From a bacterium (GTDB lineage: Bacteria; Thermosulfidibacterota; Thermosulfidibacteria; Thermosulfidibacterales; JALWSI01), in the NCBI GenBank assembly GCA_027080315.1, contig JALWSI010000245.1, positions 1-10,165 of the forward strand: DNA of 10,165 nucleotides, in the 5' to 3' direction. This document shows positions 1-10,165 of the stretch, piece by piece. The notes under the pieces are model-generated. The model had not been told where the DNA came from and searched no databases. It saw nothing but the letters and a program-made list of their open reading frames with translations. The number at the start of each line of letters is the position of its first letter. The first letter of the stretch is position 1. Both the position numbers and the translations under genes were made by a program.

Positions 1-50
1 TCAAGAGCAACTGTGGCCTTGAACTTCGCCGAATATCTCCTACGACCCAT
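1..50 (-). CDS. IS3-family transposase OrfA, N-terminal fragment (runs off left edge)
   Basis: An ATG at 50-48 on the minus strand opens a frame reading MGRRRYSAKFKATVAL and then leaves the window. This is the typical start of an IS3/IS911-type OrfA: a basic head followed by the (F/Y)S-x-x-FK-x-x-V-A-L segment that begins the helix-turn-helix DNA-binding domain. A good AAAGGAGGG ribosome binding site lies a few bases upstream, and the start is about 50 bases inside the presumed IS end, the usual distance for this family. In complete elements OrfA is joined to the OrfB integrase-type DDE domain by programmed frameshifting; that part is not in the window. Only 16 full codons are visible, so the family call rests on this short match plus the IS-like terminus. 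Confidence 0.7.
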   Translation of the reverse strand, partial: MGRRRYSAKFKATVAL

Positions 51-103
51 AGCAGACCCTCCTTTGGCTCTACCTTAGCATACTGTCTCATTTTTGGGGT
101 CCA
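1..103 (-). mobile_element. End of an IS3-family insertion sequence (rest lies outside the window)
   Basis: Read on the minus strand, the stretch starting near 103 begins TGGACCCCAAAAATGAGACA, which resembles the terminal inverted repeat of IS3-family elements (TG start followed by a CCCC-AAAA run). It is followed by a ribosome binding site and the start of an OrfA-like reading frame. The exact outer boundary is uncertain: TGG at 103-101 is the natural start, but an edge a few bases further out, up to 108, is possible. The other end, orfB and the target duplication are not visible. The insertion interrupts the HEPN gene ending at 88, which picks up its last codons and stop from the IS end. 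Confidence 0.75.
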
Positions 104-441
104 CTATAAAACTCCATCCACAGATCTTCGTTTATGGGAAAGCCTTTTTTGTGAGCAAGGTTAACCAGGTCAACCATGGTCATACCTTCAACAGCCTCAC
201 CCTTGCCCAACATATAGTAAAAGAGCAGCCTGCCCAAAACATCCTGGAGTTTAAGATATCTATAGGCAATCTGATCCAAGAGATAGAGACCTTCCTTTTC
301 TAAGGAGAGCCTTTCCACCTCACGGCCACTTAAGGGGAAAAGATCTCTCAGCGTCCCAAAGTCGCTCTTCAAAATGGTAAGATGCCTCTCTGCCTCCTGC
401 CAATATGCTCTATGACGTAAAAGAAGGGCCTCTTTCGTCAT
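88..441 (-). pseudogene. HEPN-domain (HepT-like) toxin, C-terminally truncated by the IS
   Basis: The 117-residue frame looks like the helical HEPN partner of MNT nucleotidyltransferases. Residues 56-70 (DQIAYRYLKLQDVLG) and the GFPINEDLWMEF segment near 100-111 match the subfamily in which a helix of type R(F/Y)xRLQDxLG is followed by LW-x-x-(I/F)R-x-LRN-x-x-x-HEY. The frame stops just where that RN-x-x-x-H RNase motif should begin. After F111-Y112 the codons for SGPQK and the TGA come from the insertion sequence end. The gene therefore lacks the catalytic Arg/His and about 25-30 C-terminal residues, and is probably inactive as an RNase. Its ATG overlaps the TGA of the upstream MNT gene by 4 nt (ATGA), which implies translational coupling. 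It might still fold partly and bind its partner. The HEPN assignment is from visible pattern, not a database search. Confidence 0.72.
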
Positions 442-740
442 ATCTCAACGCCCTCTTCCAAGGCTATTCTCTCCACAGGGCTCCTTGGCTCATCAACCAC
501 CAAGAGAGCTATCTTTCTCTCTCCAAGTCTCTTGCACAGCTCAACAAAGATCCTCTTTCTCGCGTTAAACCTCTCTTCTGTAGAAAAGGAACGGGAGACT
601 TTGACCAAAATATCTATATCTCCCCCCTTTTTTGAAAGATCAGCCCTGCTTCCAAAGATGAAGACCCGCGCGTCGTCTCCTAAAACACTTCGCACTGCCT
701 CTTTTATCTCCATCATCTGGCGCTCTGTTAACCTTACCAT
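438..740 (-). CDS. MNT-family minimal nucleotidyltransferase, antitoxin of the second MNT-HEPN pair
   Basis: This 100-residue protein has the DNA polymerase beta-like nucleotidyltransferase signature: G30-S31 (FIFGSRAD) followed by D41-I-D43 (GGDIDILV), the metal-binding pair. In known MntA/HepT systems such enzymes neutralise the HEPN RNase by adding AMP to a tyrosine next to its active site. A third acidic residue usually lies in a later KID-type strand. Here the matching strand reads KIALLVV with A78, so the third carboxylate seems to be missing. The C-terminal segment SPVERIALEEGVEI is typical of the subfamily. The ATG directly abuts the TGA of the preceding HEPN gene (TGAATG), and its own stop overlaps the next HEPN start. 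With its HEPN partner cut by an IS, this may now be an orphan antitoxin. Confidence 0.8.
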   Translation of the reverse strand: MVRLTERQMMEIKEAVRSVLGDDARVFIFGSRADLSKKGGDIDILVKVSRSFSTEERFNARKRIFVELCKRLGERKIALLVVDEPRSPVERIALEEGVEI

Positions 741-1130
741 TCAAGCAACACCCCGAAGCTTGGTGATAAGTGCCCTTATGGCTCTAACATACACCTCCTT
801 TATTCTCTCAAAGATCTCTCTGGAGGTCTTCTCATCGTAGATGTGAGAGCTTCTGTTTCTATCATCAAGCATATCAAGCAGAAGCTCATCATCCTCTATC
901 AAAGCATGCCTAAAGGCCTTCTTCACACACTCACGGGGTGAGTGACACTCAATCTTATTGTACTCTAAAACCACCTTCAGAGTCTTCCACAAAAGCTCAA
1001 CGGTGAACTCAAAACGCTGGATCGCCCCATCCCTGTCAAGATCATCAACTGCAATGGCCACAGCCTCCTCAAGCCTTTCACAGGCCCGGTTCAGCCTCTT
1101 TATGGCAAGTTCAACCTCTACCTTTTTCAT
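741..1130 (-). CDS. HEPN-domain toxin of the HI0074/HepT type (first MNT-HEPN pair)
   Basis: The 129-residue, mainly helical protein resembles the HI0074 family, long annotated as nucleotidyltransferase substrate-binding protein. Segment 38-53 (QRFEFTVELLWKTLKV) is its hallmark helix. R91-N-R-S-S-H96-I-Y98 fits the HEPN active-site pattern R-x4-H and the extended R-x4-H-x-Y. In studied HepT toxins the Arg and His cleave RNA and the Tyr is the residue AMPylated by the partner MntA. All three are present, so this copy should be functional. The start codon lies within the end of the upstream MNT gene (20-nt overlap), with a GGTGAT ribosome binding site inside that gene. Its stop abuts the start of the next MNT gene. 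The likely role is a growth-inhibiting or phage-responsive RNase; the family and motif are seen, the role is inferred. Confidence 0.85.
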   Translation of the reverse strand: MKKVEVELAIKRLNRACERLEEAVAIAVDDLDRDGAIQRFEFTVELLWKTLKVVLEYNKIECHSPRECVKKAFRHALIEDDELLLDMLDDRNRSSHIYDEKTSREIFERIKEVYVRAIRALITKLRGVA

Positions 1131-1467
1131 AGATCACCATTCCCGTATCTTCCACCACGCTCTTGAACTCAGGATCAACCTTATCGGCAAATAGCAGGTC
1201 CACGGTGTAGATGCCTGCCAGCAGGTCTATCTCTTCTCTCAACTTGCGAGATTCCCTGTGCGACAGATCCCTACCCCCATAAACGAAAAAGTCTATGTCG
1301 TAGCCAGACCTTTTCGCTCTTCCTGAAGCAAGAGATCCAAACAGGAGTATTCTATTAGGGTCAAGTCTTTCGACTAAAAGCTCTCTTAATTTATCAATCC
1401 TCTCTTTTACCGTAGCCTGAACCTCACCTTCCGTACCTGTCTTCAAACCTTTCAATGTCGTCCTCAC
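1111..1467 (-). CDS. MNT-family nucleotidyltransferase, antitoxin of the first MNT-HEPN pair
   Basis: This minimal nucleotidyltransferase carries the catalytic set: G44-S45 (LLFGSLASG), D57-I-D59 (GYDIDFFV) and a third acid D90 in YTVDLLFAD, counted from the GTG at 1467. It would act as the AMP-transferring antitoxin of the overlapping HEPN gene. The start is uncertain. The GTG at 1467 has little upstream signal, while a TTG at 1455 sits about 5 bases after AGGTGAGG, a good ribosome binding site, and would give 114 residues. Either start lies inside the 3' end of manC, so the gene overlaps manC by 32-44 nt in another frame and is probably translationally coupled to it. An intact active site and a paired HEPN gene make the family assignment firm. 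Confidence 0.85.
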   Translation of the reverse strand: MRTTLKGLKTGTEGEVQATVKERIDKLRELLVERLDPNRILLFGSLASGRAKRSGYDIDFFVYGGRDLSHRESRKLREEIDLLAGIYTVDLLFADKVDPEFKSVVEDTGMVIYEKGRG

Positions 1468-9469: not shown

Positions 9470-9648
9470 GGGTAAGGACTGAGTAAGGAGTCAGGGATCA
9501 AAGGTCAGTAGGCAGTAGTCAGAGGATTCTTGAAACTTAAAACTTGCAACTTAAAACTTCTACTAAACCCAACAAACCCAATGAACCAGATAGACGAGAC
9601 AGGACGAGATAGACCAGATGAACCAGATGGACCAGACCGACCAGAAGA
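9470..9648. repeat. Mosaic of degenerate short tandem repeats downstream of apgM
   Basis: No gene is seen here. Three repetitive segments follow each other. First, 9470-9526 mixes variants of AAGG and CAGTAG/GTCAG. Second, 9532-9559 holds four copies of a 7-mer ending AACTT (two exact copies of AACTTAAAACTT, 14 bases apart). Third, 9562-9643 holds nine units of about 9 bases drifting from ACTAAACCC through AATGAACCA to GATGGACCA and GACCGACCA. Units are imperfect, and one is 10 bases long. There are no stems of hairpin size and no spacers, so it is not a CRISPR array. It ends just before the toxin-antitoxin promoter. Confidence 0.75.
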
Positions 9649-9677
9649 TTGACGATATCGCCAAAGAGTCATACTAT
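9649..9677 (+). promoter_or_regulatory. Promoter of the RHH antitoxin/MazF toxin pair
   Basis: TTGACG (9649-9654), a 17-base spacer and TACTAT (9672-9677) match 5/6 and 4/6 of the sigma-70 hexamers with ideal spacing, the best promoter seen in the window. Transcription would start near 9684, about 22 bases before the likely antitoxin ATG at 9707, with GGGAGG (9695-9700) between. A small palindrome, GGTA-T-TACC (9679-9687), overlaps the start point and could be an operator for autoregulation by the ribbon-helix-helix antitoxin. The operator role is inferred from family behaviour. Confidence 0.5.
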
Positions 9678-9706
9678 TGGTATTACCCTAAGGTGGGAGG
9701 ATGGTG

Positions 9707-9949
9707 ATGGGTGCAGTGAAGGTGGCCATAACCATGGATGAGGATCTTTTTAGAAAGGTGGATCTCCTTGTGAAGAAGGGGGTCTTCTCCAGCCGAAGCG
9801 GCTTAATAAGAGAAGCATTAAAGGAGAAACTGGATAGGATAAGAATGGAGAGTCTGGCAGTAGAGTGTGCTAAACTGGACCCAGACTTTGAGAAGGCCCT
9901 GGCAGAGGAAGGATTCTCAACGGAGGTTGACAGGTGGCCTCAATATTGA
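9707..9949 (+). CDS. Ribbon-helix-helix (CopG-type) antitoxin of a MazEF-like pair
   Basis: The 80-residue protein has an N-terminal strand (VKVAITMDEDLF) followed by two helices with the turn VFSSRSGLIREALKEKL, the ribbon-helix-helix DNA-binding pattern. The acidic, aromatic C-terminus (LAEEGFSTEVDRWPQY) resembles the toxin-binding tail of RHH antitoxins paired with MazF. Start choice: the ATG at 9701 touches the GGGAGG ribosome binding site, whereas the ATG at 9707 is 6 bases away and is preferred; a GTG at 9716 is less likely. The stop overlaps the toxin's TTG start. It is expected to sequester the toxin and to repress its own promoter just upstream, as in related systems; both are inferred. 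Confidence 0.85.
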   Translation: MGAVKVAITMDEDLFRKVDLLVKKGVFSSRSGLIREALKEKLDRIRMESLAVECAKLDPDFEKALAEEGFSTEVDRWPQY

Positions 9950-10165
9950 GGGGAGAGATTAGGTGGGCAGACCTTAATCCCGTAAAGGGTCGTGAGCAGG
10001 GAGGGGCCAGACCGGTAGTGATAATAAGCCATGATGTTTTCAACGAGCGGTCGGGCACAGTCATCGCCATGGCCATAACCAGTAAGCCTCAGAAGGCCGG
10101 CTATCCATTAACCCTACCGCTGGAGGATGTGGGTCTTCCTAAACCTTCGTGGGTGAAGATAAGTC
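9946..10165 (+). CDS. MazF/PemK-type endoribonuclease toxin, 5' part (runs off right edge)
   Basis: The frame opens with TTG at 9946-9948, overlapping the antitoxin stop (TTGA), and stays open to the end of the window (73 codons). No ATG lies near the family's expected start; AGGTGG 8 bases upstream supports the TTG. The protein begins RGEIRWADLNPVKGREQGG and continues with the MazF core: R22-PVVIIS (expected catalytic Arg), a short loop, then GTVIAMAITSK with T45/S46 at the expected catalytic Thr/Ser position. MazF toxins are sequence-specific mRNA interferases neutralised by the upstream antitoxin. Roughly the last 35-40 residues of a typical 110-residue protein are missing because the window ends, not because the gene is visibly broken. 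The rare TTG start and the overlap may keep toxin output below antitoxin. Confidence 0.88.
   Translation, partial: MRGEIRWADLNPVKGREQGGARPVVIISHDVFNERSGTVIAMAITSKPQKAGYPLTLPLEDVGLPKPSWVKIS

What the first reader, a model, noticed from the sequence alone, without database searches (positions are those of the whole stretch)
88..135. IS insertion removes the predicted RNase motif of a HEPN toxin
The second HEPN frame aligns with its subfamily up to ...EDLWMEF and then reads SGPQK-stop from the IS terminus. The expected next segment is the LRN-x-x-x-HEY motif that carries the RNase Arg and His. The insertion thus disarms the toxin at the active site while leaving most of the helical body and the antitoxin intact, as expected if loss of toxicity was selected. 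The truncated protein may still bind the antitoxin.
Basis: partly seen in the sequence, partly recalled or inferred. Interest (0 to 1): 0.6.

Follow-up and report, generated by a model that had tools for sequence, protein, structure and literature searches.

The report
Insertion element splits a HEPN toxin
A jumping gene has landed inside a bacterial toxin gene just before the residues that make it an RNA-cutting enzyme, and the cut-off end of the gene, with those residues, was found on the other side of the element; this is a clear but fairly ordinary case of a broken toxin-antitoxin module.

Summary
The 117-aa frame (88-441, minus) has 111 HEPN residues ending ...EDLWMEF, then YSGPQK-stop read from the left tip of a 1,270-bp IS3-family element (window 1-108). 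The displaced 3' part was found elsewhere in the same assembly: contig C231 begins with 108 bases of that element's right end (108/108 identical to a complete copy) and continues FRFLRNSFTHEYPD...LNL-stop, which carries the RX4HXY motif. Both junctions have TTT, a 3-bp target duplication. The pieces fill profile positions 2-109 and 108-149 of 152 and are the only two matches in the genome. Full-length relatives carry RNxxxHxY next to a nucleotidyltransferase. The toxin is very probably dead as an RNase. Two parts of the interpretation are weaker. (1) The antitoxin is not fully intact: it has Ala78 where 21 of 24 readable subfamily members have the third metal-binding Asp. (2) Selection for loss of toxicity is not shown: the same IS also abuts a cut biotin-carboxylase frame and other sites. 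Retained antitoxin binding is doubtful: the break is mid-helix and removes the last helix of the bundle. An adjacent second MNT-HEPN pair keeps its motifs.

The parts
1..108 (-). Left end of an IS3-family insertion element (contig edge lies inside it); includes the start of the transposase orfA (ATG at 50-48, frame 1-50)
   Evidence: 108/108 identical to the left end of the complete 1,270-bp copy on C137; the C137 copy's orfA matches HTH_Tnp_1 and its orfB rve/HTH_21
109..111 (.). Target duplication (TTT on the minus strand), also the last native codon, F111
   Evidence: TTT at both IS junctions, window and L010 109-111
109..441 (-). 5' piece of the HEPN toxin gene (HEPN2), residues 1-111
   Evidence: profile positions 2-109 of 152, E 1.4e-34; relatives fold as HEPN
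88..108 (-). IS-derived tail YSGPQK and stop
438..740 (-). Partner MNT nucleotidyltransferase (antitoxin, MNT2); GSx9DxD kept, Ala78 (codon 509-507) at the place of the third Asp
   Evidence: PF01909 E 1.4e-6; alignment with 10 relatives and a wider set
741..1130 (-). HEPN1, HI0074-type HEPN, RX4HXY present (RNRSSHIY)
   Evidence: PF08780 E 1.9e-35; TIGR01987 E 1.9e-30; solved relatives 1wty, 8xdj
1111..1467 (-). MNT1 nucleotidyltransferase, GSx11DID and third Asp present
   Evidence: PF18765 E 3.1e-11, PF01909 E 1.4e-8; alignment

Best explanation
The four minus-strand genes 1467-88 are two tandem MNT-HEPN (type VII-like) toxin-antitoxin pairs. A 1,270-bp IS3-family element inserted with a 3-bp duplication into the last gene, HEPN2, after codon 111. 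The 5' piece now ends in six IS-encoded residues. The 3' 41 codons, holding the RNase Arg and His and the Tyr that the antitoxin would adenylylate, lie beyond the element, now on contig C231, without a start codon of their own. The toxin is therefore inactive as an RNase, and its partner has no target residue to modify. Shown: the insertion, both pieces, the duplication and the motif. Inferred: that the intact gene was an active RNase neutralised by adenylylation, and that the pieces are inert. The cause (drift or selection) is undecided; relaxed constraint on the whole pair would explain the antitoxin's Ala78 equally well.
For: IS boundary and identical ends, TTT at both junctions. Displaced 3' part. 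Only two profile matches in the genome, abutting at positions 109/108. HEPN-bearing relatives carry RNxxxHxY beside an MNT gene. The predicted fold of an intact relative (pLDDT 93) matches HEPN toxins as all 15 top solved structures, Z 14.8 to 10.6. RX4HXY and the Tyr are the HepT RNase and AMP-acceptor sites (PMC7641770).
Against: The element is not read through in one contig; the two sides are paired by frame, family profile and duplication, not by a spanning contig. The assembly is a draft of 253 contigs, and a mixed population with intact cells cannot be excluded. Toxicity of this subfamily has not been tested.
Confidence: 0.93

Rival explanations
1. The insertion was selected because it removed a harmful toxin, perhaps after the antitoxin had lost its third metal-binding Asp and no longer neutralised it.
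For: Break lies just before the active-site motif; the partner MNT2 has Ala78 where relatives have Asp. The pieces have no stops, and the IS ends are identical to another copy, so the insertion looks recent and the substitution may be older.
Against: The same IS also abuts a cut biotin-carboxylase frame and other loci, so insertion into non-toxin genes occurs. Any break in the gene's first ~120 codons would remove the motif, so its position is not special. One subfamily member (L078) has His at that Asp position and still keeps an intact HEPN neighbour, so the third Asp may not be essential.
Confidence: 0.25
2. The truncated HEPN is kept as a functional antitoxin-binding or regulatory protein.
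For: Frame is open with 12 of 13 subfamily-invariant residues of that part kept.
Against: The break is inside a predicted helix and the last helix of the bundle is lost; the active-site face that contacts the MNT in the HepT/MntA complex is gone (PMC7641770). Recent insertion explains the open frame. An invariant Arg (R74) is Phe here.
Confidence: 0.05
3. Assembly artefact: the HEPN and IS pieces were wrongly joined and the gene is whole in the organism.
For: Contigs break in the IS; the complete IS copy on C137 has unlike flanks (GAA and GGT), so misjoins or recombination at this repeat are possible.
Against: The gene's two halves each abut the proper end of the same IS in the proper orientation and frame with a matching duplication; no third, uninterrupted copy exists in the assembly.
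Confidence: 0.04

Closest known systems
HepT/MntA type VII toxin-antitoxin (Shewanella oneidensis SO_3166/SO_3165; PMC7641770)
   Same: HEPN with RX4HXY downstream of a small MNT nucleotidyltransferase with GSxnDxD; same fold (6m6u Z 12.8, 5yep Z 12.0)
   Different: Sequence is far from PF01934/HepT (no Pfam match for the window piece); spacing GSx9DxD; antitoxin lacks the third Asp; toxin split by an IS
HI0074/PF08780 HEPN proteins (1jog, 1wty, 8xdj HEPN toxin)
   Same: Closest by sequence among named models (TIGR01987 E 6.8e-8 for an intact relative, below its cut-off) and best by fold (Z 14.8 for 8xdj)
   Different: Scores below the curated cut-offs, so a separate subfamily of about 152 aa; the adjacent HEPN1 in the window is the true HI0074-type member
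IS3-family insertion sequences
   Same: orfA with HTH_Tnp_1, orfB with rve and HTH_21, run of eight A then G where orfA and orfB overlap, 3-bp duplication, 1,270 bp
   Different: Left tip TATAG, right tip TGAGAC (read inward); subgroup not determined

Membership tests
HEPN/MNT (type VII) toxin-antitoxin | HEPN toxin with RX4HXY | tested here: met
   Only in the displaced 3' piece on C231 (RNSFTHEY); absent from the window piece
HEPN/MNT (type VII) toxin-antitoxin | Adjacent MNT gene with GSxnDxD | tested here: met
   MNT2 438-740, GSRADLSKKGGDID; spacing 9, not the 10 of MntA
HEPN/MNT (type VII) toxin-antitoxin | Third metal-binding Asp of the MNT (D71 in MntA) | tested here: not met
   Ala78 in MNT2; Asp in all 10 close relatives and 21 of 24 readable members. 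Correspondence with D71 is by position in the domain, not by a confident pairwise alignment
HEPN/MNT (type VII) toxin-antitoxin | HEPN fold | tested here: met
   Model of intact relative L020, pLDDT 93; Z 14.8-10.6 to HEPN structures
HEPN/MNT (type VII) toxin-antitoxin | RNase toxicity and adenylylation by the partner | not testable with these tools
   needs expression and assay
IS3 family | Two overlapping ORFs with HTH and DDE/rve domains | tested here: met
   C137 copy
IS3 family | Short imperfect terminal inverted repeats and 3-4 bp target duplication | tested here: met
   GGACCCCA and GACAGT shared by both ends; TTT at both junctions

The most novel reading that the evidence does not exclude
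The antitoxin lost its catalysis first (Ala78), and the IS insertion into the toxin was then a rescue event, leaving a module in which both partners lost their catalytic residues while the neighbouring MNT-HEPN pair stayed whole.
Probability: 0.15. Interest if true: 0.45.

Novelty: new member of a known kind. Interest (0 to 1): 0.27.

Why it matters
It is an unusually complete natural record of a toxin-antitoxin module being switched off: both gene pieces, the element and its duplication are recovered. The pairing of a dead toxin with an antitoxin that lacks a conserved catalytic residue gives a small, testable case for the order in which such modules decay. Interrupted toxins as such are ordinary.

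Tried and rejected
Pfam, NCBIfam and PADLOC on the 117-aa frame gave no match, so family placement rests on relatives. Empty-site check in close relatives: none of the 8 other genomes of the order has a detectable full-length copy of this HEPN. C129 and C166 were tested as the far side and rejected. The search for the missing N-terminal part of the cut biotin-carboxylase next to an IS found no partner, so that insertion stays one-sided. Paper searches for IS-interrupted HEPN toxins found nothing on point. The two toxin halves were analysed apart and not joined.

Full report
What was checked. The window is contig C245 (1-10165) of a 1.84-Mb draft genome in 253 contigs. On its minus strand, 1467 to 88, lie four tightly packed genes: MNT1 (1467-1111), HEPN1 (1130-741), MNT2 (740-438) and the 117-aa frame HEPN2 (441-88). 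MNT1 and MNT2 match nucleotidyltransferase domains and HEPN1 matches PF08780/TIGR01987; HEPN2 itself matches no named model.

The break. Window 1-108 is identical in all 108 bases to the left end of a complete 1,270-bp element on contig C137. That element's orfA matches HTH_Tnp_1, its orfB matches rve and HTH_21, and a run of eight A followed by G lies where the two frames overlap, as expected of an IS3-family element that uses frameshifting (the frameshift is from general knowledge of the family). HEPN2 therefore has 111 native codons, ending with F111 at 109-111, and then reads YSGPQK-stop from the element. The tip position is fixed by comparing flanks: the base before TATAGTGG differs between copies, and so does the base after GTCTCA at the other end.

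The far side. The right end of the element was searched in the same genome. Three contigs begin or end in it with full identity (C166, C231, C129). Only C231 carries the missing piece: after ...GGGGTCCGTCTCA it reads TTTAGGTTTTTGAGGAAC..., that is FRFLRNSFTHEYPDSHDEMARAINRLRELLSLIEASLERLNL-stop. TTT stands at both junctions, a 3-bp duplication. With a profile of eight intact relatives, the whole genome gives exactly two matches: C245 at positions 2-109 (E 1.4e-34) and C231 at positions 108-149 (E 7.4e-8) of 152.

The family. Relatives were taken from 145 genomes and from the GTDB contig collection. Complete ones are about 150-154 aa and have RN-x-x-x-H-[E/D]-Y; all ten lie beside a small MNT gene. 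Among 24 further MNT loci of the subfamily, 21 have a HEPN neighbour with RNxxxHxY; three (L066, L067, L079) show no HEPN of this type, L048 has an internally shortened one, and L072 shows only the 3' part. An AlphaFold model of the intact relative L020 (pLDDT 93.2) matches HEPN toxins: 8xdj Z 14.8, 1jog 14.3, 6m6u 12.8, 5yep 12.0; all of the top 15 are HEPN/HepT-like entries.

What is lost. In the model's numbering the break is between residues 111 and 112, inside helix 105-118, just before R112 and R115-N116...H120-x-Y122. Lost are the end of that helix, the motif loop and the whole final helix 126-150. In HepT/MntA the Arg and His are the RNase residues and the Tyr receives AMP from MntA (PMC7641770), and the Rx4-6H motif sits at the end of helix 3 (PMC3710099). 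So the piece in the window lacks both the active site and the modification site. Antitoxin binding by the piece is not excluded but is unlikely given the loss of a core helix; this is inference.

The antitoxin. MNT2 keeps GSx9DxD but has Ala78 where all ten relatives have Asp; in a wider set the column is Asp 21 times, His twice (both in one genome) and Ala only here, with one row gapped. In MntA, D71 is the third Mg ligand (PMC7641770); the correspondence is by position in the domain (the profile alignment to 5yep stops just short of it). 'Antitoxin intact' is therefore not right at the level of predicted catalysis. One of the two His-bearing MNTs (L078) has an intact HEPN neighbour, so the loss need not abolish neutralisation. 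HEPN2 itself has Phe at an otherwise invariant Arg (R74; and the alignment).

Was it selected? Not shown. The same IS, with 99 identical bases, abuts a biotin-carboxylase frame cut at its N-terminal side on C104, and other copies lie elsewhere, so the element does not need a toxin as target. The missing N-terminal part of that frame was not found next to an IS. A break anywhere in the first ~120 codons would have removed the motif. Loss by drift and loss by selection both fit; the order of the antitoxin and toxin lesions is unknown.

Verdict. A confirmed IS insertion that splits a HEPN toxin at the doorstep of its active site, with both halves recovered. A new instance of a known kind; modest interest, raised a little by the second lesion in the antitoxin.

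Noticed in passing
window 438-740 (codon at 509-507): The antitoxin MNT2 has Ala78 in place of the third metal-binding Asp conserved in its subfamily.
   Followed up: partly
window 741-1467: A second, directly adjacent MNT-HEPN pair (HI0074 type) with all motif residues present precedes the broken pair.
   Followed up: partly
window 9701-10165: A ribbon-helix-helix / MazF-PemK-like toxin-antitoxin pair lies at the other end of the contig, the toxin cut by the contig end.
   Followed up: no
L048 (G002:C12, same order), around 1249-1791: A related MNT-HEPN pair in another genome of the order has a HEPN of only 93 aa that lacks the middle of the domain but keeps RNKLAHEY; four unknown residues (N) nearby, so it may be an assembly gap.
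   Followed up: partly
L029 (C137:2118-3387): The one complete copy of the IS has unlike flanks (GAA / GGT), so no target duplication: recombination between copies or a misjoin.
   Followed up: no
window about 9520-9650; L010 840-960 and 1500-1602: A dispersed non-coding repeat (aggattctt..aaacttaaaacttgcaacttaaaacttctactaaacccaacaaacccaatgaac..) followed by accagat-type short repeats occurs between genes on both contigs.
   Followed up: no
L066 and L078 (genome G272): Two MNT genes carry His instead of the third Asp (GEQKIHLI); one has an intact HEPN neighbour, the other none of this type.
   Followed up: partly
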